Source of the DNA: a virus | IMG/VR virus record: IMGVR_UViG_3300044655_001119 | Location: 1 to 32,769 of that record | Strand: one strand, 5' to 3' | Length of the DNA stretch: 32,769 nucleotides | Shown here: positions 14,231 through 27,433 of the stretch, piece by piece | Position numbering within the stretch: the stretch's first letter is position 1 | Layout of the letters: every line of letters starts with the position of its first letter | Position numbers and translations under genes: made by a program | Notes under the pieces: generated by a model | Told to the model about the DNA's origin: nothing | Database searches by the model: none | What the model saw: only the letters and a program-made list of their open reading frames with translations

Positions 14231-17200
14231 ATGGCTACTGATTTCAGAGACTACTTCAACAATCGGATCACCCAAGAAATAGAGAAGAATGCTCAGTTGG
14301 GCATCTCCTCAAGGTACGACCGGCTTCAGCAAGCAAGCCAGGAAAAAGCCGCTCAGCTCGCTGAGTTGCGAGAGCAAAGACTCAAGCTGCGGCAAATTCA
14401 GGAAGCTACGTTTGGTGCCAAACTTGGGTTGGATCCAGATGGGGTTGCCAACGAAGCAGTCAACTTGGTTGATTCGGTCTGGCAAGGCACCAAGAACACC
14501 GCTCGAGCTCTTGGCGCAGCAGGCAACACGCTGATTGGGGATCTCTCGGGTGTTGACGAATACGCTGCAGCACAAAAAGCAGATGCGGACGGCGGACCTA
14601 CAGCCAAGATTGAGTTGCTGGCTGAAATCGAGCGCCGCAAACAAGCCGATGCAAATCCTGGCGTGGTTTCTGCAGTACAAAACGTGACCGGTGCGATGGT
14701 TGACAGTCCATCCGGCAGTGCTCAATTCATTGCAGAACAGCTTCCAAACAGTGTTGTTTCTTTGGGTGCTGGCGTCGCTGGTGCCAAAGCAGGTGCAGCA
14801 GGTGGCGCTGCTCTGGGTTCAGTGGTTCCAGTGGTTGGTACTGCTGCAGGTGCAGCGGTTGGTGGAACTCTTGGTTTCTTGGGTGGCATGTTCTTGGGCA
14901 ACTCTTTGCTTGAGACTGGCGGTAAAGCCATGGAGAAAGCCCAAGACGGTGGAATGACCAAGGAAAAAAGAGTCGAAGCTCTGAAAGAAGGCGCAATCAA
15001 AGGCGGCGTGATTACTGCTGTCGATGCTGCAACTCTTGGCTTGGGAGGCAAGGTTGCAAAAGGTCTCAACAAAGCAGCCATTGACGCAGGCGCACGAGCT
15101 GAAGCAAGGGTGTTGGCAAATGCTGGGATCGACATTACTGATCTGAAGGCCATTGAAAGTGCTTTGGCAGATCCCCTGCTTCGTAGCGCAGCCAGAACCG
15201 CAGGGTTGTCTGCAGCTCAACAGACTTCAAAGATCGGTACTAGAAGCGCGACTGCTGCAACCGGTTTGACCATGGAAACGGTAGGCGAGGGCGCTGGTGA
15301 ATACCTGGGCGAACTTGCAGCTACCGGGAAAGCGGACATCTATGACGCTGTGCTTGAGGCTGCAGCAGGCTTTTCTCAAAGTGTTCCTGAAACAGCCTTC
15401 AACATTCAAAGCGCACAGGGCAATGACTTAAACGCCAAAGGCATGTCTTCGGCGGACTTGTCGATTCCTGATCCTGTACAACCAAAGAAGGTAGCCGACG
15501 CCACCCGTTTAGAGGCCGTCAAAGCCGCGATCGAGTCAGGTGATGTCAGTGCCTTGGTTGATCCCAAGAGCGCTGTCTATGCCCCGGATCAGGCCATTGC
15601 TGCACTGTTTGGTAACAGCCAGAAACAAGGCGTCACGCCTGAGATCAAACAAGCCAACTTCGAGCAAGCCTCGAAGATTGTGTCTGAGCTGGAAGCCGAG
15701 CGTGCCAAGGCTCAGGAAGCCTACAACGAAGTTTCTCCGGAAGGCATTGCCCAGTACCAGAGTCAGCTGGCTCAAGCCAAAGCCGAAGGCAACCCAGAGA
15801 AAGCGGCTTTGCTGGAACAAATCGTTGCTGATGCGGCAAACAATCCTAAAGATGCTGAACGTCTGCAGAAGCAGATCGCTCGAATCGATCAGCAACTGGG
15901 CCGTGCTCAGGAAGTCCTGACCACGTTTGCTCAAGCAAACCAACCCAAGGATCTGGATGTTGAGGCTGAGGTTGCCAAGATTACGTCTGCTGATCCAGTG
16001 GCTTCACAAGATGCTGCGAACCGCATCATCAATTTGTCGATGGCTATTCCTGAGAGCCTGTCTACGGGTGTGGCGTCTTCACTGGCATCCGACCTGTCCA
16101 ACGGTTTGTCGGAGTCTCAGCGTTCCTACCTGAGGACGTTTTCCAAAGCCCGTGCTGCAGAAAGCAAACTGAAAGACCTGGGGCTAGTTTCTCAGGAGAT
16201 CTACCGTGGAAGCCCTAAGGGCGCACCTGGCATCAAGTACGTTGGCTTGACCAACTACCGAGCCAATGTGACCACGGCTTTGACGGCAGGCAATCAATCA
16301 GCTGCAGACAAACAACTGGGCATGCTGACTCGATTTGAAGCCAGTCACCAAGGCAAGGCTCAAGCGGCTTCTGAAGCGCTGGCTGCATTCGAGAATGACG
16401 GCATCAATCGCCGCATCGTTCGAAACAATTACGGCAGTTGGACTGTCGAACAAGGCTTGTGGCCTAGCGAAAAGCAAAGAGCATTGAACGGCGGTTTGAA
16501 CATCAATGCCAATGCTGAAAAACTGGTTTCAGAAACCAAAACAGAAGCGGCCGCTATTTCAGCAACTGCTGCCGAATTGAAAGCAGCTTATGCAGTAAAG
16601 TTTGGTTCAGGTAATGCCGGTGGAGCCAGTAATGTCCAGAACGTACCGCAAGCACTCGAAGGAATTCAAAGAGCCGAAACGGAGCTTCGATCCGAAGCCC
16701 CGACGCAAGATGGAACCGCTGAGGGAGTTGCGACTACCGGAGGAGGAGCCGCTGCCGATGTTTCGGCCGATGCAACAGCTGGAACTGATGCTGTAGCAAC
16801 TTATGACAGCATGCAGCCAGGTCAGCAAGTAACGCTGTACCGTGGTGAAGGGGTAGGCGTTGGTGGGAATGGCAACGACGCTAACGGTCAGTGGTGGACT
16901 ACTGATCGAGCCAAGGCTGAGCGGTACGGCACCGTAACTGAAGTTACTCTTCCTGCCGAAATCATTGCTCAGAACGCTGCTCGTGGAGACAAGAGCAACA
17001 ACGAATTTGTTTTTCCGAACAAGCGTCCGGCTGAGCTTGCTGCTGCAGCAACTGAGGAGGCTCCGTCCTCTGCTGCGAGCACTGTAGGAACTGCTCAACT
17101 GCAGTCTACTGAGGAGACTACCACCTCGTCTGAAGGGGTCGTTCCGGGATCTGAAGCGGTCGCAGAAGCTGTGGAGCCTCAAGGGCTTACCGCACTCCAA

Positions 17201-20200
17201 CAGAAGTCCCTGGAGGGGACAGCTCACGGTGACAAGAAGCTGGGTGATTTTTTCACCCAGTCTGCTGGCAAGGAGACCGATGGCTCCAAGCGTCCTCTGG
17301 TCGCCGTCAAGAACTTCATGTCAGCTGTAGCTCTGGAGACTGTGAAGATCAGTCAGTACCTCAAGGATCAGAACCTGGGTGATGGTCCCAAGTTGCTGGT
17401 ATGGACCAAGTTCGTGGAAAAGGCTGCAGCCTGGGCACCGATCATCACTCGCAACCTGAAACCAACTCACAACGAGAAGTTCAACTACGAAGATCCTATG
17501 CGCTTCCTGATCCAGTCACTGACAGTGAATGGCAGGACAGTGGCCGATGTTGAGGAGAACGTGAAGACCGCGATCTCTGCTGCAGTGTTTGGCTACACCG
17601 CCGATCAAGCAGGGCGTGCAGAGCTGAATGACGACAAGGCGATCAACAAGATACTTAACCGTGCTCCAGATTCTCCGGTCAGTTCCGATGCAACTGCAAT
17701 GCTTGCTGATGTCGGTGTTTACCAGTCGCAAGTGATCGACTCTCTTGGTTCGGCTGTCATTGATGCGCTGGGTTTGAGACTGGACCGAAATGCACCTAAA
17801 GACATGCTGGCCAAGATGCAGGTGTCATTGGGCGCACATGCACTGAAGCTGATGGAAGACGCCGAGCTGCTGGTTCGCAGCGAGCGCACCAACGATGAGA
17901 TAAACAAGCTTCGTTCAGAAAAGTTGTTTGAAGACAGCGAGTCTGGTAACCAGACAAATGAAACAGCTTTCTCCACTGACAATACTAAAGGCCATATTTT
18001 CTACAAGCTGACTCGAGATAGCTCAGGTCAGCCCGTTGGTAAAGCCAAAGAGATTGCTGATGCAATCAAAGGCTCACAGAGCTTGATCCAGAACCTGTTT
18101 GGTATTGAGTCGAGCCTGTCGTTCCCAAGCCTTACACCGCCCAAGGGTTTGCAGAAGGAATCTGATACAGGCATGGGCTTGCCTGGTTTCATCAAGAAGG
18201 TGTTCAAGCTCAATCAGACTCGTCCCTGGAAAGCCAACAAAGATCCATTGAAGGTGCTGAGTTTCTTCTCTGAGGAAGAGGGCTTGACGATGGCCGGCGT
18301 TGAGGATTCAAGTGAACACACTCACCGACGCAACCTCAACAGCAAGCGTGCAAAGAACGACGGCTTGATCCGTGAGTTCCGCAACTTTATGGAATTCGTG
18401 GGAGAACTGGCTACGGGTGAAAAGGGTATGGATCAGGAGTTCTTCCTGAGCCAAGAGATGTGGAAGCAGCAGCGTTCGGGCTACAAGTCCAACACTGTCA
18501 ATCCCAACACCAGCAAGATTGTTCGCTGGCTTGTGGCTCCTGATGCTTGGAGCACAGACATCGATCTGAACAACAAAGCCCAGCTGCAGTCTTTTATGCT
18601 GCGTGCATCGGAAGGCTTTGGCATCAAGCCAGAGAAAGCAGACAGCCAGAAGGCAGTCGATGATCTGACTGCAATGATGCAGACCCCGGCAATGCAAGCT
18701 GCAGTGAAAGCACTGCAAGCAGTTTTGTTCTCGGACAATGCTCAGCCTACTGAACAGCAACGCACTGACATCATGCAAGCAGTGGCTGCTGGCAAACAAA
18801 AGCTGCACACGCTGGCTTCATTGATTGCCTATGCGCGCTACCAGCAGGCCGTGGACACCAAAGCAGACAGCTTCACCACCAACCTAATGGGTGAAGTCGA
18901 TGGTGTGTCGAACGGTTCGATCCTGAACTCGATCATGTACGGTGCTGCTGCAACCGCAGAGCAACTGAACATGCTGCTTGAAAAAGGCGGCATCTACACG
19001 CTGGGCAGCAAGTTCCGCCAGTACAACCTGTGGAGAGGTACTCCAGGCCACCAGGACATCTACGAGTCCAACGCTCAAGACTTGCACACCTACGTCAACT
19101 CGATGCCTAAAGGCACTCAACCTGTGACAGCTGCGATCTGGAACACTGCTGGTTCCCCGATCGACGCTGCAATGGAAGCAACGAAAGACGGCCGTGATCT
19201 GCTCAAGGGCCCAATCAACCCGCTGAACTACGGTGGTGGCTTCAAGAGCATCATCGGCAAGATGGCCTACAACTACGTGGACACCATCTACGAAAAGCTG
19301 GAAGGCTTCTCACGCAAGGGTGCTGATCAAGCCACGGTCAACGAGTTCGTGCGCAACGTGAACGTGCTGCTTGCTGCAGTCCGTGCACCTCAGATGCCAA
19401 CCGGCAGACCGATTGCTTTCTACTTGGGGTACACGTTGTCCAAGGCACAGGAAGCCGCTTTGCGTAAGGCTTACTCCGACACGATCGGTGTGGCTGCAAA
19501 GGAAGTGGTCGGTGCCAACTTCAAGCCATTCCTGGATCGAAGCAAGCTGGTGACGCAGACAGTCAACCTGACCTATGGCTTGTACGAATCTGTTTACAAC
19601 GCTTCCCGTGAAGCGATGATAAAAGAGATGGGCATCCCTATGTTGAAGGGTGAGCCTATCCATGATCTGACCGTGGCTCAGGAAGCAGAACTGGCCGAGC
19701 GACTGAAGGCCATCCTGCCTGTCATGCACACGGCAATGTCCAAGGACGAAGGCAATGTCGACAACGGCATCTTGCTGGCCAAGAAAGGCCGCAAGCAGAA
19801 CAACAGTGCACCATACAAGGTGGCAGTTGGTTTTGGCTCCAAGCTTGGAAACGGTGCAAGCCAGCTGACTGCATCTGGTCGTTCGATGGTTCAGACCGAT
19901 CCCGGTGTGATTGCCATCTCCGGTACGACACACGCTCTGGATAGTGCTGTCTCCCACGAAGCACAGGAAGCCAACCATGTTCTGAACAACCACGATGCGG
20001 TGGGTGCTGGCATCAATGTGCTGGCTGAATCAGCCGAGCTGCTGAACAAGAGCACCTGGTCCAAGACGCTCAACTACTCTCCGCTGAATGAAGCCCACGA
20101 TGCACTGATGCGTGTGGTTCAAGGCATTGTTGCCATGGATCAGCGTGGTGAGTTGACGCCCGAGATCAAGGCAGCGATCAAGGAGAAGCTGAAAGAGCTT

Positions 20201-23200
20201 TCCAAGAAGAGCCGTGGCAGCAAAGTCGAGTCGATTGTAGACACGACTGCGTTCAACATCTTCAGTGAAGCTTTGGAAGCCAACCGCATCAAGTTTGGTG
20301 CGATGGCTCAATGGGCTGTGGTCGATCAGTACCCCATGGACGGCGGCAGCTACCAAGTCACCGATGCCGATCGTCAGGAAGCTCAGGCCAAGCTCGATGC
20401 GTTGAGCCCGGTTCGTTCAGAAGCCGATCGTCAAGCACTGGATGCTTTTGCTGCTTCGTTGTTCGGTTCGGGAGCCGTGAGCGCCGCGCCGGTGGCACCG
20501 GCACCGGCAGCGGCTGCTCCCAAGGCGACCGTCACCAGTTTGTTTGGTTCGATCGGTACTCCGGCCATTGCCAGCGACACCGACCTGGTGGAGTTCTTCG
20601 AAAGTAATCCTGAAGCGTCGGCTGCTGAAGTCATCAAGCTGCTGGGAGCCGAAGGACGGATGAATGCCATCAACCGCAAGATTCTGGGTCTGGTGGCTCG
20701 TGTAGTGAGCCCGGACCTGAAGATCAAGTTCGTCACGCCTCAGACGGCACCAAGCATGGTGTTGGAAAAACCAACCACCAATGCTCGTGGCTGGTTCGTG
20801 ATCAAGGATGGCCAGGAAGAGATCTACGTTCTGAGCCCTGAGTTCGTGAACTCCGGTCTGACGACTGAGACCTTGCTGCACGAGCTGGTGCACGCTGCAG
20901 TGGCCCGTGTCATCGACAAGCCTTCCAAGGAAGCCGAAGCACTGGTAGCCGAGCTCGAGGCTCTCCGAGTCAAAGCTCAGGAATTTGCAACGGCCAATGG
21001 CCTGACTCAGTACGGACCAGCTTTGGCCAATGTGCAGGAGTTCGTGGCTTGGGGCATGAGCAACTTGGGTCTACAGCGTGATGTGCTGACCAAGATCACA
21101 ATGCCTTCCAAGACAGGTTCAAACCGTCTGGTCAACGGCATGCAGAAGTTCATCTCTGCGCTGACTGGTCTGCTGTTCAAGAAGCCCGATGCCAACATTG
21201 ACAACGGTCTGGCCGTACTGGTCAGCAACGTGTCTGGTTTGTTCTTCGAAGCCTCTCAGGTCAACGCTCGTACCGGGACCAACCTAAACCTGGCTCAGGA
21301 GACGGTTGCACCGATCGATGCCTACACGACCCTGGACATCCACCAGGCGCTCGATAACGGCACGCTGGAGCCATCGTTCAAGGCCCACCTAGCCAACCTC
21401 CTCGGCGGCATCGTTCAGAGCCTCCACGGCCCGTTTGGTGCGTTTGCGGCATCCATGCGCAAGACCGAGGCTGGCAACCCTCTGGCGGTATGGCTCAAAG
21501 CCATGGAGACAGGGCAGGCACCGTTCGCCTCACGGATCGTGGCATCCGGTTTTGCAGGGTCTGCACAGGAAGATTTTGCAATGCAGCAGGTGGAAGCCAC
21601 TGTCAAAGCCGCACTGGATGGCAACGAGGCGCTGACCAAGATTGCCTACAAGCAGCTCTCCGACCTCTACACCGAGGTCAAAGGCAAGTTGAAGCCGTTC
21701 GACTTCAAGTCTCAGGCAGACTACGATTTCGTCTTCAAGCTGGAGAGCGACAACGGCGATCGGTCGGACTACCTGGCCCGCTTTGCAGCGTTGGGTCTGG
21801 CCAATCAGCAGTTCAATTCCATGCTGAAGATGGCTACTGAGCGTGACACACGACGCTTTGGAGAAGGCCAGACCTTCACTGAGCGACTGGAGAACATCTT
21901 CGAGAAGATCGTAGCGTTCTTCACTGAGAAGGTAACGAAGACTTTTGCTGGCCAGAATGCCGATGCAAAGCTGGAAGCACTGGTTGGTCAGCTGGTGGAC
22001 ATCGAAGCCAAGAAGCGCCATCTGATCAAGCGCAACGCCACACGCATCAACTATCTGGCTCCGGTGGAAGATGGTGCACGCAAAGCTACTGAAGCCGTTC
22101 GTTCAGTTGTGGGTCGCGCTGCGGACTCAGACTTTGTGCGAAACAACCGCTTAGCTACGGTCCGTGCTGTGGGCAGTTTGGTTCGGACTGTTGCTGATGA
22201 TCGGGTTGATGGTTTCCTGGATACCCTGCAGCGTTACAGGGACTCGACCTACGAAGGTCGCCAAGGCATTACTGCTGGTTTGATCTCGGATTTGAAAGGA
22301 CCGCTGAATCACTTCGCTGCGTTGTTGCGTGAAACCAAGCGCCATGAAGGTGAGCGCAAAGCCATCATCACCCAGCACTCTCAGCTGGCGCTGAGCACGT
22401 TCATCAATGCAGGCAAAGACCTGAGCAAGGAAGCCAAAGCAAGCATCTCGTCTGTGTTCCTGCGGACTGGTGCACACAACCTGTTAGACACCATGACGCT
22501 GGCCGAGATCGAGAAGCTGATTGGTGATCCGGCCGAGTTGAACAAGGCCATTGCATCTGTGGAAAGCCAACTGACTGGCAAGCTCAAGGATCGTTACATT
22601 GAGCAAGCCAACGCACTGGGTTACTACAAAGCAACCGGCAAGTCCCGCAATCCTGTACTGATGCTGAACTCTTACCTGATTGCTCGTATGGCAGGCACTC
22701 AGTTCAAGAAGCAGGTGACAGAGCAGCAAGCAAAGCAAGCTGAGCCGATCATTGCTTCACTGGTTTCGTTGTACGCCTTGAAGTATTCCAGCGTTCAAGA
22801 CCTGGCTCAAGCCAAGCAGGTGTTCCGCACAGAGAACAACCGGCCGGCCGGCAACGGTGTGGAGTTTGTGCTGAAACTGCACAAGCAGATGGAAGCAGAG
22901 TCTTTGGCTCGTCTGTTCAAGGGCAACCCTGCACTGATGATCCACGGCTACACGCCTGAGATCTTGAACCCTCACACAACCATTGCGATTGCTGATGCAG
23001 CCGAAGGTGCGAACCTGGAAGCCCAAGGCTACTCCAAGGGCGGTTTGGTGACTCAGGATATGGCTGACCCTGACAAGTCCAGCAAGCGGATCTATGTACT
23101 GCGTGATGGTGGTTTGGCTCCGTACCTGACAGGGGTGTTTTCACTGACTGGTTTGCAGGCCAAAGGCACTAAGAAGCAAAGCGGCTATGTGAACGTCAAC

Positions 23201-24766
23201 ACCCAGGCTGGACTGGACAACGCAAATCTGCAGGCCGAGATCACCAATGCCAAGCTGCAAACGCTTCAAGGCAAGAACGATCCACGCCGAGATCTGTCTC
23301 AGCAGTCTGGCAACCACCTGGTGCCTGTCTTCAACGAGGTGGGTGACATCGTGAACTGGCGCTACATGATGGCCGAGTCCACCAAGAACGATCTGCTGGA
23401 ACGAGACAACCGGTTTGAGAACATTTTGGGTGCGTTGGCTGGTTCGGTCTATGACAAAGAGACTACGCAGCAGCAGAACTTGAAGGCTGTCGAAGTCTTG
23501 CTTCAGCAGTTCAACGATGAGTTTGCAACCCGGAGCGAGTCGTACATCGAGGTAGGTGAGAACAGCTCTGATCCCGAGATGCGAGCCATCTGGAATTTGT
23601 TGCCGGATGTTACTAAGCGTGATGTGAAGAAAGTCTGGGGACGCAACGGGATGAAGGTCCGTGTTGATGCACTGGATCTGATGTTTGGATACCGCAAGCT
23701 GTCTGCAGCCGAGTTCTTGAGGAACGATCCTGCGACGCTGCAAGGTCTGCAGAAGATCCTGCGCGAGTGGTTCAACACCTACGCACGGTCTCGCGGCATG
23801 AACGAGCAGGAAGCCGACAACTATGCCAAGCGTCTCGGTTTGGCTTTGACCAAAGGCGAACGTGCATGGCAGGAGCTGGTCCGGGAAGCCAAAGACATCA
23901 TCGTGGTGAAGACCGGTATCGTGATGCTGGGCAACATCTGGTCGAACATCTCCTTGCTGGCGATGTCTGGTGTGCCTCTCAAGGACATGATGCAGCACCA
24001 CTTGGTGGCCATGAAGGGGGCTACGGCCTACCAGCGGGACAGTGATCGTCTGGCTGAGCTCGAGACTGTTCTGCAGGTGGGCTACAGCGCCAACGACGAG
24101 CAGAAGATCCGTGACGAGATCGTCCGCTTGAAAGACTCGCTGGCACGCAACCCAGTTCGTGAGCTGATCGAGGCTGGCTTGATGCCGACCATCGTGGAAG
24201 ACGTTGCGGCCGAGGAAGACATCTACTCGTACAAGAGCGCCTTGGCACGCAAGACAGAGCGGTTCACCGAGAAGCTCAACCCGAACATCCTGGCAGCAGG
24301 ACGGTTTGTCTACATGTCACACGACACGAAGATGTACCAGTCGTTGAGTCGTATCACGCAGCTGTCTGACTTCGTGGCTAGATACACGCTGTACCAGCAC
24401 CTGACGACGCGCAGCAACAATCCGCTGAGCCAAGCCGACGCAATCCAAGAGGCTTCTGATGCGTTCGTGAACTACGACATTCCGATGCACCGTGGCATTC
24501 AGTTCACCGATGACATGGGCTTTACACCGTTCACCAAGTACTTCCTGCGCATTCAACGTGTGCTGTTGAAGCTGGCTCGTGAGAATCCAGCGAGAGTCTT
24601 AATGGCGCTTGGTTTGAACAGCTACATGGATCTTGGGCCCATCGTTCTGGATAGCTCGTTCACGCACAAGATCGGGAACAATCCCTTCAGGTCTGGTGCA
24701 TTTCAATTCCCTGGGGCACTGGATGATTTGGCTACAGTCAGTGCAGGCATGGCACTGATCAAATAA
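14231..24766 (+). CDS. Virion-encapsidated RNA polymerase (N4 gp50-like) with ART-like and zincin-like domains
   Basis: This 3511-residue protein is packaged in the head and ejected to transcribe early genes from hairpin promoters. Single-subunit polymerase motifs lie at about 1410-1960. The T/DxxGR-equivalent is QQRSGYKSNTVNPN (R1415). Motif A is GEVDGVSNG (D1557). Motif B is RDLLKGPINPLNYGG (R1655, K1659, Y1667, the same spacing as T7 R627/K631/Y639). Motif C is NEAHDALM (H1956-D1957). Other parts seen are a glycine-zipper hydrophobic stretch (174-228), a coiled coil (475-568), an ADP-ribosyltransferase-like segment (857-935; R871, WWTT at 888-891, E925) between low-complexity linkers, an Ala/Pro linker with TSLF (2084-2105), a zincin-like HELVH (2217-2221) with a possible third ligand E2270 in VQEFVAWG, and a long helical C-terminus. 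ATG 14231 was chosen; the in-frame GTG at 14180 lies inside the terminator. The ART assignment is tentative. Confidence 0.93.
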   Translation: MATDFRDYFNNRITQEIEKNAQLGISSRYDRLQQASQEKAAQLAELREQRLKLRQIQEATFGAKLGLDPDGVANEAVNLVDSVWQGTKNTARALGAAGNTLIGDLSGVDEYAAAQKADADGGPTAKIELLAEIERRKQADANPGVVSAVQNVTGAMVDSPSGSAQFIAEQLPNSVVSLGAGVAGAKAGAAGGAALGSVVPVVGTAAGAAVGGTLGFLGGMFLGNSLLETGGKAMEKAQDGGMTKEKRVEALKEGAIKGGVITAVDAATLGLGGKVAKGLNKAAIDAGARAEARVLANAGIDITDLKAIESALADPLLRSAARTAGLSAAQQTSKIGTRSATAATGLTMETVGEGAGEYLGELAATGKADIYDAVLEAAAGFSQSVPETAFNIQSAQGNDLNAKGMSSADLSIPDPVQPKKVADATRLEAVKAAIESGDVSALVDPKSAVYAPDQAIAALFGNSQKQGVTPEIKQANFEQASKIVSELEAERAKAQEAYNEVSPEGIAQYQSQLAQAKAEGNPEKAALLEQIVADAANNPKDAERLQKQIARIDQQLGRAQEVLTTFAQANQPKDLDVEAEVAKITSADPVASQDAANRIINLSMAIPESLSTGVASSLASDLSNGLSESQRSYLRTFSKARAAESKLKDLGLVSQEIYRGSPKGAPGIKYVGLTNYRANVTTALTAGNQSAADKQLGMLTRFEASHQGKAQAASEALAAFENDGINRRIVRNNYGSWTVEQGLWPSEKQRALNGGLNINANAEKLVSETKTEAAAISATAAELKAAYAVKFGSGNAGGASNVQNVPQALEGIQRAETELRSEAPTQDGTAEGVATTGGGAAADVSADATAGTDAVATYDSMQPGQQVTLYRGEGVGVGGNGNDANGQWWTTDRAKAERYGTVTEVTLPAEIIAQNAARGDKSNNEFVFPNKRPAELAAAATEEAPSSAASTVGTAQLQSTEETTTSSEGVVPGSEAVAEAVEPQGLTALQQKSLEGTAHGDKKLGDFFTQSAGKETDGSKRPLVAVKNFMSAVALETVKISQYLKDQNLGDGPKLLVWTKFVEKAAAWAPIITRNLKPTHNEKFNYEDPMRFLIQSLTVNGRTVADVEENVKTAISAAVFGYTADQAGRAELNDDKAINKILNRAPDSPVSSDATAMLADVGVYQSQVIDSLGSAVIDALGLRLDRNAPKDMLAKMQVSLGAHALKLMEDAELLVRSERTNDEINKLRSEKLFEDSESGNQTNETAFSTDNTKGHIFYKLTRDSSGQPVGKAKEIADAIKGSQSLIQNLFGIESSLSFPSLTPPKGLQKESDTGMGLPGFIKKVFKLNQTRPWKANKDPLKVLSFFSEEEGLTMAGVEDSSEHTHRRNLNSKRAKNDGLIREFRNFMEFVGELATGEKGMDQEFFLSQEMWKQQRSGYKSNTVNPNTSKIVRWLVAPDAWSTDIDLNNKAQLQSFMLRASEGFGIKPEKADSQKAVDDLTAMMQTPAMQAAVKALQAVLFSDNAQPTEQQRTDIMQAVAAGKQKLHTLASLIAYARYQQAVDTKADSFTTNLMGEVDGVSNGSILNSIMYGAAATAEQLNMLLEKGGIYTLGSKFRQYNLWRGTPGHQDIYESNAQDLHTYVNSMPKGTQPVTAAIWNTAGSPIDAAMEATKDGRDLLKGPINPLNYGGGFKSIIGKMAYNYVDTIYEKLEGFSRKGADQATVNEFVRNVNVLLAAVRAPQMPTGRPIAFYLGYTLSKAQEAALRKAYSDTIGVAAKEVVGANFKPFLDRSKLVTQTVNLTYGLYESVYNASREAMIKEMGIPMLKGEPIHDLTVAQEAELAERLKAILPVMHTAMSKDEGNVDNGILLAKKGRKQNNSAPYKVAVGFGSKLGNGASQLTASGRSMVQTDPGVIAISGTTHALDSAVSHEAQEANHVLNNHDAVGAGINVLAESAELLNKSTWSKTLNYSPLNEAHDALMRVVQGIVAMDQRGELTPEIKAAIKEKLKELSKKSRGSKVESIVDTTAFNIFSEALEANRIKFGAMAQWAVVDQYPMDGGSYQVTDADRQEAQAKLDALSPVRSEADRQALDAFAASLFGSGAVSAAPVAPAPAAAAPKATVTSLFGSIGTPAIASDTDLVEFFESNPEASAAEVIKLLGAEGRMNAINRKILGLVARVVSPDLKIKFVTPQTAPSMVLEKPTTNARGWFVIKDGQEEIYVLSPEFVNSGLTTETLLHELVHAAVARVIDKPSKEAEALVAELEALRVKAQEFATANGLTQYGPALANVQEFVAWGMSNLGLQRDVLTKITMPSKTGSNRLVNGMQKFISALTGLLFKKPDANIDNGLAVLVSNVSGLFFEASQVNARTGTNLNLAQETVAPIDAYTTLDIHQALDNGTLEPSFKAHLANLLGGIVQSLHGPFGAFAASMRKTEAGNPLAVWLKAMETGQAPFASRIVASGFAGSAQEDFAMQQVEATVKAALDGNEALTKIAYKQLSDLYTEVKGKLKPFDFKSQADYDFVFKLESDNGDRSDYLARFAALGLANQQFNSMLKMATERDTRRFGEGQTFTERLENIFEKIVAFFTEKVTKTFAGQNADAKLEALVGQLVDIEAKKRHLIKRNATRINYLAPVEDGARKATEAVRSVVGRAADSDFVRNNRLATVRAVGSLVRTVADDRVDGFLDTLQRYRDSTYEGRQGITAGLISDLKGPLNHFAALLRETKRHEGERKAIITQHSQLALSTFINAGKDLSKEAKASISSVFLRTGAHNLLDTMTLAEIEKLIGDPAELNKAIASVESQLTGKLKDRYIEQANALGYYKATGKSRNPVLMLNSYLIARMAGTQFKKQVTEQQAKQAEPIIASLVSLYALKYSSVQDLAQAKQVFRTENNRPAGNGVEFVLKLHKQMEAESLARLFKGNPALMIHGYTPEILNPHTTIAIADAAEGANLEAQGYSKGGLVTQDMADPDKSSKRIYVLRDGGLAPYLTGVFSLTGLQAKGTKKQSGYVNVNTQAGLDNANLQAEITNAKLQTLQGKNDPRRDLSQQSGNHLVPVFNEVGDIVNWRYMMAESTKNDLLERDNRFENILGALAGSVYDKETTQQQNLKAVEVLLQQFNDEFATRSESYIEVGENSSDPEMRAIWNLLPDVTKRDVKKVWGRNGMKVRVDALDLMFGYRKLSAAEFLRNDPATLQGLQKILREWFNTYARSRGMNEQEADNYAKRLGLALTKGERAWQELVREAKDIIVVKTGIVMLGNIWSNISLLAMSGVPLKDMMQHHLVAMKGATAYQRDSDRLAELETVLQVGYSANDEQKIRDEIVRLKDSLARNPVRELIEAGLMPTIVEDVAAEEDIYSYKSALARKTERFTEKLNPNILAAGRFVYMSHDTKMYQSLSRITQLSDFVARYTLYQHLTTRSNNPLSQADAIQEASDAFVNYDIPMHRGIQFTDDMGFTPFTKYFLRIQRVLLKLARENPARVLMALGLNSYMDLGPIVLDSSFTHKIGNNPFRSGAFQFPGALDDLATVSAGMALIK

Positions 24767-25127: not shown

Positions 25128-25433
25128 TTACTTGATGAGGATTTCCTCAAGCTTTCCACCCTTCGCCAGGTGTGCTTCAACCCATTTGGGTTTACGTCCT
25201 CGACCGGACCAGGAGTTGGTTCCGGATTGATACTTCATGGCCACCTTGGCTCGACCAGTAGCAGTGATCTTGACTGGCTCACCGAAGCTCAAGTCTCGTA
25301 CACGGATGCCGTAGAATTTGATCTTTTCGTTGATGTCTTCGATCGCAGCAGATCTTTCCTTGGAAAGAAGAGCGTCTCGTTCTTTTTGTAGAGTCTCGAT
25401 CTGTTTCTGCAGATCATCGAGCTTGTTGGCCAT
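25128..25433 (-). CDS. H-NS-like DNA-binding protein
   Basis: The 101-residue product has an N-terminal coiled coil (about 1-40, LDDLQKQIETLQKERDALL) for oligomerisation and a C-terminal H-NS-type DNA-binding domain with YQSGTNSWSGRGRKPKWVEA at about 68-87, ending in LEEILIK. The WSGRGRxPKW version of the binding loop is the form I associate with betaproteobacterial H-NS relatives rather than the enteric TWTGQGRTP form. I chose ATG 25433, preceded by AAAGGAATACCG; an upstream extension in frame would run through the neighbouring gene and lacks similarity. It is the last gene of the - strand operon. It may silence host or phage genes, compete with host H-NS, or organise phage DNA; the sequence does not separate these. 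Confidence 0.9.
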   Translation of the reverse strand: MANKLDDLQKQIETLQKERDALLSKERSAAIEDINEKIKFYGIRVRDLSFGEPVKITATGRAKVAMKYQSGTNSWSGRGRKPKWVEAHLAKGGKLEEILIK

Positions 25434-25473
25434 CGGTATTCCTTTCGATTTGGGCGGTTCGTGGAAGAGGTTT

Positions 25474-25704
25474 TCAAGAGCCTTCTTGGGTTCCTCTTCC
25501 TTCGCCTTTTGACGGGCGAGATGGTACTGATTCGTGCTCACAGTATTCCTTGATACAGAGGGCAATGATCGCTATGACAGCTGCGCCCAACAGGACTGCT
25601 CCTGCTACGGCAACGAGTGCTGAGATGAGCGCACCTCCAACCAATAGTACAGTGAGAACGAGGATTGAGGCTAGGGTATAGCCGATCCCTTTGAGTACGC
25701 CCAT
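25474..25704 (-). CDS. Small two-helix membrane protein
   Basis: The 76-residue product has two adjoining hydrophobic helices (about 8-30, TLASILVLTVLLVGGALI, and 31-52, VAVAGAVLLGAAVIAIIAL) with a tight turn, followed by a polar Ser/Gly/Glu-rich tail. I cannot name a family. Small size and two helices would fit a holin-like or superinfection-related protein, but neighbours are replication genes and no lysis enzyme is in the window. The ribosome site is odd: GGAGGA lies directly against ATG 25704, with almost no spacer, which should reduce initiation. The gene starts 12 bases after the 111-residue gene ends. Confidence 0.7.
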   Translation of the reverse strand: MGVLKGIGYTLASILVLTVLLVGGALISALVAVAGAVLLGAAVIAIIALCIKEYCEHESVPSRPSKGEGRGTQEGS

Positions 25705-26650: not shown

Positions 26651-26915
26651 CAGGTGCTGCGGGTGAGTCGTCAATCTCTACACCGAAGGGCAGAGTACCG
26701 AGCTCCATCAGGGCCAGTGACAGGCCCATCAGAAAGCCCTTGTGCAGATCGCCCGACAGGATTTGTGGGGCTTCGTTGTTGAAGGTGACTTCGACGCCTT
26801 CAGGCATGGACAGCATGTGCTCCAGGGTTTTGACCTTGGACTCATGCCAGCCACTCAACAGCTGGATGAACTGGTCAATGTCTGCAACCACTACGGTTTC
26901 TGGCTTCTGGTTCAT
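26634..26915 (-). CDS. 93-residue protein of unknown function
   Basis: The product begins MNQKPETVVVADIDQFIQLL, has a helix with WHESKVKTLEHML, a strand-like EGVEVTFNNEAP, another helix KGFLMGLSLALMELG, and an acidic Pro-rich end. I do not recognise a family. The last helix is hydrophobic but short for a membrane anchor. The start ATG forms an ATGA overlap with the stop of the Tad2-like gene, so it is translationally coupled; a TTG at 26927 in frame is less likely. It also overlaps the RuvC-like start by 17 bases. Confidence 0.75.
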   Translation of the reverse strand: MNQKPETVVVADIDQFIQLLSGWHESKVKTLEHMLSMPEGVEVTFNNEAPQILSGDLHKGFLMGLSLALMELGTLPFGVEIDDSPAAPDEPVH

Positions 26916-27433
26916 ACGAGCATCCAATCATCAGACAGCATGTCCGTTTGTGAAGCCAGCCAACCCATCAAGATGCCGACACGCCCGTGAGCGTTGACAG
27001 TCTTCATGGTGATCGCTGGCAGAACCAGAGCCTTGCCACCGTTGTCCGTTGCAAAGTCTGCGTTGTTCTTTGACCAGAAGTTCTCTGCAGCCACCAAATG
27101 GCCATCCAGAGAGCCTGACAACGACAACCACATGCCTTTGCCATTCCAGCCGGCTCGAGCAACCTTGTGACCCTTTTTGAGGGCTTCCAGTGCCAGGCCG
27201 AAGGTCATGCCATCGGTAGCGCCATAGGCGTTGTTGAAGACTTCTTTAGGACTCCAAGACACGTAGCCGTTGTAGTCTGGCGTGTTGGGAGAACCGCCAT
27301 CCAGATACTCGACCAGGAAGCCTTCGTCAGCACCGTTCTCGTTGGCTGGAAGATCCCAACCACGGAAGGTGTTGTACTCGGCCCGTGTCATGGGCTTGGC
27401 ATTGATCAGCTTGACACCGATGTACTGTTTCAT
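26912..27433 (-). CDS. Tad2-like (DUF2829) protein with N-terminal extension, candidate anti-Thoeris
   Basis: Residues 76-170 match DUF2829: MTFGLALEALKKGHKVARAG (76-95), WNGKGMW (96-102), ITMKT (141-145) and GWLASQTDMLSDDW (157-170). Tad2 proteins of this family bind and sequester cyclic ADP-ribose-type signals made by Thoeris defence; some relatives bind other immune nucleotides. The first 70 residues (YIGVKLINAKPMTRAEYN, then FLVEYLDG and YVSWSPKEVF) form a second conserved phage domain that I have seen fused to DUF2829 but whose role I do not know. The insertion of about 35 residues between WLSLSG and LPAITMK is longer than the minimal form. The gene is coupled by ATGA overlaps to the gp49-family gene before it and the 93-residue gene after it. 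The immune function is inferred from family membership. Confidence 0.85.
   Translation of the reverse strand: MKQYIGVKLINAKPMTRAEYNTFRGWDLPANENGADEGFLVEYLDGGSPNTPDYNGYVSWSPKEVFNNAYGATDGMTFGLALEALKKGHKVARAGWNGKGMWLSLSGSLDGHLVAAENFWSKNNADFATDNGGKALVLPAITMKTVNAHGRVGILMGWLASQTDMLSDDWMLV

What the first reader, a model, noticed from the sequence alone, without database searches (positions are those of the whole stretch)
16799..17035. ADP-ribosyltransferase-like domain inside the ejected RNA polymerase
Residues about 857-935 read LYRGEG (R871), GQWWTTDRAKAERYG (T890/T891) and SNNEFVFPNKRP (E925), the R / S-T-like / E order of ADP-ribosyltransferases with the common E-x-V-F-P ending. Low-complexity Ala/Thr/Ser/Glu linkers flank it on both sides, as if a module had been inserted. 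T4 Alt is a known precedent for an ART injected with phage DNA to modify host RNA polymerase. An ART fused to a virion RNA polymerase would let one ejected molecule both transcribe phage genes and modify host proteins. It could also relate to NAD-based immunity, which the Tad2-like gene in this window also targets.
Basis: partly seen in the sequence, partly recalled or inferred. Interest (0 to 1): 0.8.

Follow-up and report, generated by a model that had tools for sequence, protein, structure and literature searches.

The report
ADP-ribosyltransferase-like module in ejected polymerase
A giant RNA polymerase that an uncultured N4-like phage injects into its host carries a small swappable extra domain that looks like an ADP-ribosylating enzyme; the same domain turns up in other proteins that enter cells with phage or plasmid DNA, so it is probably a host-modifying tool that has been passed between them.

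Summary
Window 16799-17044 encodes an ~80-residue module in the linker between the N-terminal and polymerase domains of an N4-like virion RNA polymerase (vRNAP; phrog_2206, E=0). It is a conserved domain, not chance: about 21 other IMG/VR contigs, phages phiKT/PGT2 and one plasmid relaxase carry it. R, W-T and E are invariant, and dN/dS is about 0.13 in two diverged pairs. A sister phage whose vRNAP is 85.5% identical over the last 2576 residues lacks it cleanly.

The ADP-ribosyltransferase (ART) reading is supported by profile comparison: ART-PolyVal (0/100 shuffles) and, more strongly, a stand-alone YRG/SWT/ExE family. It is not proven. No Pfam or PDB sequence hit exists. Foldseek ranks ARTs first for one model (E 0.08, not significant) and not for the better second model.

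An ART fused to an N4-like vRNAP was published in 2017 (PMC5512222), for a longer H-Y-D type. New here is a short R-(W)WT-E type shared by vRNAPs, internal virion proteins, polyvalent proteins and a MobF relaxase, sitting where the N4 model puts a membrane-anchored, cytoplasm-facing linker. The proposed Tad2/NAD-immunity link fails: Tad2 occurs in module-less relatives and was not found in the other module-bearing vRNAP phage.

The parts
14231..24766 (+). N4-like virion RNA polymerase (3511 aa from ATG 14231; the open frame starts at GTG 14180)
   Evidence: phrog_2206 virion RNA polymerase E=0; match to N4 mini-vRNAP crystal structures E 3.7e-16
14780..14902 (+). Gly/Ala-rich hydrophobic stretch (aa 201-241), probable membrane-spanning part of the N-terminal domain
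   Evidence: weak Gly-zipper match E 0.015, below Pfam cut-off; N4 NTD has predicted membrane helices at 224-278 (PMC12633501)
16637..16795 (+). N-side low-complexity linker (aa 820-872; 23% Ala, 13% Thr, 13% Gly)
   Evidence: corresponds roughly to the N4 NTD-RNAP linker 907-1007 (PMC12633501)
16799..17044 (+). ART-like module (aa 874-955)
   Evidence: alignments of 15 and 20 homologues; hmmsearch of this ORF E 4.8e-35, aa 876-955, with a model that includes this sequence; absent in L039 and LUZ7
16841..16843 (+). R888 in LYRG (predicted strand 1), invariant
16892..16900 (+). W905-W906-T907 (predicted strand 2); W906 and T907 shared with the stand-alone SWT family
17003..17005 (+). E942 in NEFVFP (predicted last strand), invariant; lines up with the E-x-E region of the stand-alone family
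17045..17215 (+). C-side low-complexity linker (aa 956-1012; 18% Ala, 14% Thr, 14% Ser, 16% Glu)
17216..20428 (+). single-subunit RNA polymerase domain (aa 1013-2083)
   Evidence: alignment to LUZ7 vRNAP; match to N4 vRNAP 2po4/3c2p
20879..20893 (+). HELVH zincin-type motif (aa 2234) in the C-terminal domain
   Evidence: N4 C1 domain has the conserved HExxH (PMC12633501)

Best explanation
The module is a compact ADP-ribosyltransferase-superfamily domain of an R-(W)WT-E type. It has been inserted into the flexible linker between the membrane-associated N-terminal domain and the polymerase domain of an N4-like vRNAP. vRNAP is packaged in the virion, ejected through the ejectosome and left anchored at the cytoplasmic side of the inner membrane (published model for N4). 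The module would then be exposed to host NAD+ beside the entering DNA in the first minutes of infection. There it most likely transfers ADP-ribose to a host macromolecule, either a factor near the entering DNA or host RNA polymerase as T4 Alt does, to favour take-over or block a defence. Shown here: presence, conservation, insertion in the linker, occurrence in other DNA-entry proteins, profile similarity to ART families. Inferred: ART fold, catalysis, target.
For: Invariant R, W-T and E across carriers as little as 31-41% identical and in a plasmid MobF relaxase. Purifying selection, dN/dS 0.13 in two diverged pairs. Profile match to ART-PolyVal: score 21.8, 0/100 shuffles (max 15.5), 45 natural decoys (max 13.9), with YRG on YHG and WWT on the F-[FL]-T strand. 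Profile match to stand-alone YRG/SWT/ExE proteins, score 44.6, P 4.7e-8, 0/100 shuffles; those also match ART-PolyVal, 0/100 shuffles. AF2 models pLDDT 80.5 and 86.9. For the window model the seven best PDB matches by Foldseek are all ARTs. Context is DNA-entry proteins: vRNAPs, phiKT internal virion protein with SLT domain, LPD38/LPD1/ART-PolyVal/DarB-like polyvalent proteins, TrwC-type relaxase. The N4 NTD-RNAP linker is ~100 residues and RNAP/CTD refold in the cytoplasm (PMC12633501).
Against: No Pfam family matches any of the 15 members meaningfully and no PDB chain matches by sequence. Foldseek E-values are not significant (best 0.077), and the better model of a homologue does not rank ARTs near the top; its first ART is rank 35, although that has the highest TM-score (0.43) of the listed hits. 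The classical Ser of the STS motif is Trp here, and the first residue of the E-x-E pair is not conserved, so a standard arginine-specific transferase is not predicted. At ~80 residues it is shorter than most ARTs. No target or activity is known.
Confidence: 0.6

Rival explanations
1. It is an ART-fold NAD+ hydrolase or phosphorylase, or an enzyme acting on a small NAD-derived immune signal, rather than a modifier of macromolecules.
For: The second triad position is aromatic (W905) and the first E of E-x-E is not conserved. In the published survey R-S-E-clade RES proteins with a substituted Ser are NAD phosphorylases (PMC9503650). The phage also encodes Tad2.
Against: Tad2 and the module do not travel together: Tad2 is in module-less L039, L040, L041, L042 and L046 and was not found in module-bearing L011. 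A few vRNAP copies per cell would be an inefficient NAD+ sink (inference).
Confidence: 0.15
2. It is a conserved non-catalytic adaptor (an ART-derived or unrelated small fold) that binds NAD+, nucleic acid or a host partner.
For: Very small; Foldseek matches not significant; no curated family match.
Against: The strictly kept residues coincide with the ART catalytic positions R, the strand-2 T and E, rather than only hydrophobic core positions.
Confidence: 0.17
3. It is an ordinary spacer or linker segment of vRNAP with fortuitous motifs.
For: It lies inside a low-complexity linker.
Against: The sister vRNAP has the linker without it. Homologues occur in many unrelated proteins with invariant residues and purifying selection.
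Confidence: 0.03

Closest known systems
ART-PolyVal (PF18760, Tox-ART-HYD2 / N4-like ART) fused to vRNAP of Roseovarius Plymouth podovirus 1 and other Rhodovirinae
   Same: An ART domain N-terminal to the polymerase in an N4-like vRNAP; profile similarity over strand 1, strand 2 and the following helix. An Alt-like role was already proposed (PMC5512222).
   Different: ART-PolyVal is ~140 positions long with an H-Y-D active site (PMC5512222); this module is ~80 residues with R, WWT and E, is not recognised by PF18760, and can occur in the same polypeptide as a true ART-PolyVal domain (L012).
Stand-alone YRG/SWT/ExE phage proteins (Mesorhizobium phage Cp1R7A-A1 QIV65782, Mycobacterium phage DrLupo gp66 and others; phrog_4776 for Cp1R7A-A1)
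   Same: Best profile match of the module (P 4.7e-8); shares YRG, WT, A and E in register.
   Different: Separate small genes with a true S-W-T and E-x-E; function not annotated.
T4 Alt (PF03496)
   Same: Works-like model: a virion-packaged, injected ADP-ribosyltransferase (PMC5512222).
   Different: No significant sequence or profile match (7/100 shuffles score as high); Alt is a separate protein.

Membership tests
ADP-ribosyltransferase superfamily | Conserved catalytic triad in R-S-E or H-Y-E order | tested here: inconclusive
   R and E invariant in 20/20 rows; second position is WWT rather than STS, with T invariant.
ADP-ribosyltransferase superfamily | Split beta-sheet NAD-binding fold | tested here: inconclusive
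   AF2 pLDDT 80.5/86.9. ARTs are the top seven PDB hits for one model at E 0.077-1.5 but only rank 35 for the other.
ADP-ribosyltransferase superfamily | Profile similarity to an accepted ART family | tested here: met
   Module vs ART-PolyVal profile score 21.8, 0/100 shuffles, P 0.0042.
ADP-ribosyltransferase superfamily | NAD+-dependent transfer or hydrolysis | not testable with these tools
   Needs biochemistry.
ART-PolyVal (PF18760) | Match above the curated cut-off | tested here: not met
   No PF18760 match for the module or any of 15 members; the RPP1 vRNAP used as positive control matches at 9.8e-9.
ART-PolyVal (PF18760) | H in strand 1 (H-Y-D configuration) | tested here: not met
   R replaces H in all rows.
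T4 Alt/VIP2 ART (PF03496) | Pfam or profile match | tested here: not met
   No PF03496 match; T4 Alt itself matches at 5.8e-36; hhalign not significant.
N4-like virion RNA polymerase (carrier) | Homology over NTD, RNAP and CTD with N4-like gene order | tested here: met
   phrog_2206 aa 28-3517; TerL, portal, MCP, vRNAP, SSB, primase gene order.
Polyvalent-protein domain | Occurs in several unrelated large proteins delivered with DNA | tested here: met
   vRNAP, LPD38/LPD1/ART-PolyVal proteins, internal virion protein with SLT, MobF relaxase. Delivery itself rests on the literature.

The most novel reading that the evidence does not exclude
A previously unclassified minimal ART family with an R-(W)WT-E active site. 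It works as a transferable early-infection effector cassette swapped between phage vRNAPs, internal virion proteins, polyvalent proteins and conjugative relaxases. In vRNAPs it is held at the cytoplasmic mouth of the DNA-entry channel so that it modifies what meets the incoming genome.
Probability: 0.4. Interest if true: 0.72.

Novelty: new variant of a known kind. Interest (0 to 1): 0.52.

Why it matters
If active, one ejected polypeptide would both transcribe the early phage genes and modify the host at the point of DNA entry. The presence/absence pair (this phage and its 85.5%-identical sister L039) gives a natural comparison for asking what an ART adds to an ejected polymerase. The same small module in a plasmid relaxase suggests that phages and conjugative plasmids share a DNA-entry effector that the domain libraries searched here do not recognise.

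Tried and rejected
PF03496 search of the record: no match, and the control also failed to ring. Pfam, PDB and PHROGs for the module itself: nothing significant. Two genome-contig scans: no confirmed relatives. Weak tblastn hits in RcXuper (a HAD phosphatase) and Pantoea phage Survivor were rejected as not ART-like. Comparison with T4 Alt was not significant. A module tree cannot decide whether the two vRNAP modules form a clade (AU p 0.44; most branches unsupported). The Tad2 link was tested by co-occurrence and rejected.

Full report
What the window is. It is an uncultured viral record of 32,769 bases with an N4-like gene order: large terminase, portal, tape-measure-annotated protein, major head protein, further virion and unknown genes, then a giant virion RNA polymerase, followed on the other strand by SSB, Sak4-like, primase and exonuclease genes. 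The polymerase ORF 14180-24766 matches phrog_2206 from end to end (E=0) and the N4 vRNAP crystal structures in the polymerase domain.

The observation. All three motifs are at the stated place. The module occupies aa 874-955 (16799-17044) between two low-complexity linkers.

It is a real domain. Four scans of IMG/VR recovered about 21 other contigs with the module. In 15- and 20-row alignments R, W-W-T and E are invariant. Diverged pairs show strong purifying selection: dN/dS 0.13 for L009/L005 and for L010/L004.

It is inserted and dispensable. The vRNAP of Pseudomonas phage LUZ7 has only a short stretch at the corresponding place. The sister contig L039 is 85.5% identical over the last 2576 residues of vRNAP and syntenic at the DNA level, yet has linker sequence and no module. 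BLASTN breaks at 16722 and 17183, where the window is about 300 bases longer. Of 25 vRNAP loci from IMG/VR only one contig (L011 = L051) carries it. None of the 369 cultured-phage records that match the vRNAP region appeared when the module alone was searched; that search hit only phiKT and PGT2. In the vRNAP tree the window groups with L039 and L040, while L011 sits among other module-less vRNAPs, so the module came or went at least twice. The window module is closest to that of L010, an LPD38 polyvalent protein (70%), rather than to the L011 vRNAP module (62%). This suggests swapping between proteins, although the module tree is too weak to prove it.

Where else it occurs. Carriers include LPD38 proteins (L010, L019), a DarB-related protein (L009), an LPD1 plus helicase protein (L015) and a protein that also has a genuine ART-PolyVal domain (L012). 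It is also in the phiKT and PGT2 internal virion proteins; the phiKT one has a transglycosylase domain. It is in the MobF (TrwC) relaxase of plasmid pBPHYT01, E 3e-8 with the L011 module. Where the carrier could be identified, it belongs to a kind thought to enter the recipient cell with DNA. That is what Iyer et al. call a polyvalent protein (PMC5512222). Several carriers were not scanned for other domains.

Is it an ART? By single-sequence or HMM searches nothing is found. By profile-profile comparison the module aligns with ART-PolyVal over strand 1, strand 2 and the next helix (score 21.8; 0/100 shuffles; 45 vRNAP slices reach at most 13.9). It aligns much more strongly with a stand-alone phage family with YRG, SWT and E-x-E (score 44.6, P 4.7e-8), which itself resembles ART-PolyVal (0/100 shuffles). 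Residues Y-R-G, W-T, A and E are shared by the two groups in the joint alignment. The AlphaFold models are fairly confident (pLDDT 80.5 and 86.9). Foldseek gives seven ARTs as the best PDB matches of the window module at non-significant E-values, but not for the second model. I conclude ART-like with roughly three-in-four confidence in the fold and less in activity.

How it would work. In N4 the region between the membrane-inserting N-terminal domain and the polymerase is a ~100-residue flexible linker, and the polymerase and C-terminal domain are modelled to refold in the cytoplasm while still anchored to the membrane (PMC12633501). The module sits in that linker. It would therefore be a tethered enzyme facing the cytoplasm beside the entering DNA. 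Transfer to a host macromolecule is the most economical function, as already argued for vRNAP-fused ARTs (PMC5512222). The Trp at the Ser position and the missing first E of E-x-E leave NAD hydrolysis or a small-molecule target open.

The NAD-immunity idea. The Tad2-like gene is real (PF11195, 26912-27433 minus). But it is found in module-less relatives and was not found in the other module-bearing vRNAP phage. The two are not linked.

What is known and what is new. ART fused to N4-like vRNAP is known since 2017, and roseophages in the public collection show it. The present module differs in active site, length and family, and none of the libraries searched recognise it. It is a new variant of a known kind.

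Noticed in passing
window 25128-25565 (-): Small protein with an H-NS C-terminal DNA-binding domain (PF00816, E 8e-11), possibly a phage-encoded H-NS-like modulator.
   Followed up: no
window 26912-27433 (-): Tad2-like Thoeris anti-defence protein (PF11195, E 2e-22), also present in five of the seven related records searched.
   Followed up: partly
L077 3961-8421: MobF relaxase of plasmid pBPHYT01 carries a segment matching a phage endolysin family (phrog_938, E 3e-63) next to the ART-like module, as if a phage virion protein piece had been built into a relaxase.
   Followed up: partly
L012 4943-12325: One polyvalent protein holds both the short module (aa 451-525) and a PF18760 ART-PolyVal domain (aa 800-940).
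   Followed up: partly
L102 1243-1980 and L104-L108: Stand-alone phage and plasmid proteins with YRG, SWT and E-x-E motifs; L102 has no significant Pfam match. Likely an unannotated ART family (phrog_4776 for L102).
   Followed up: partly
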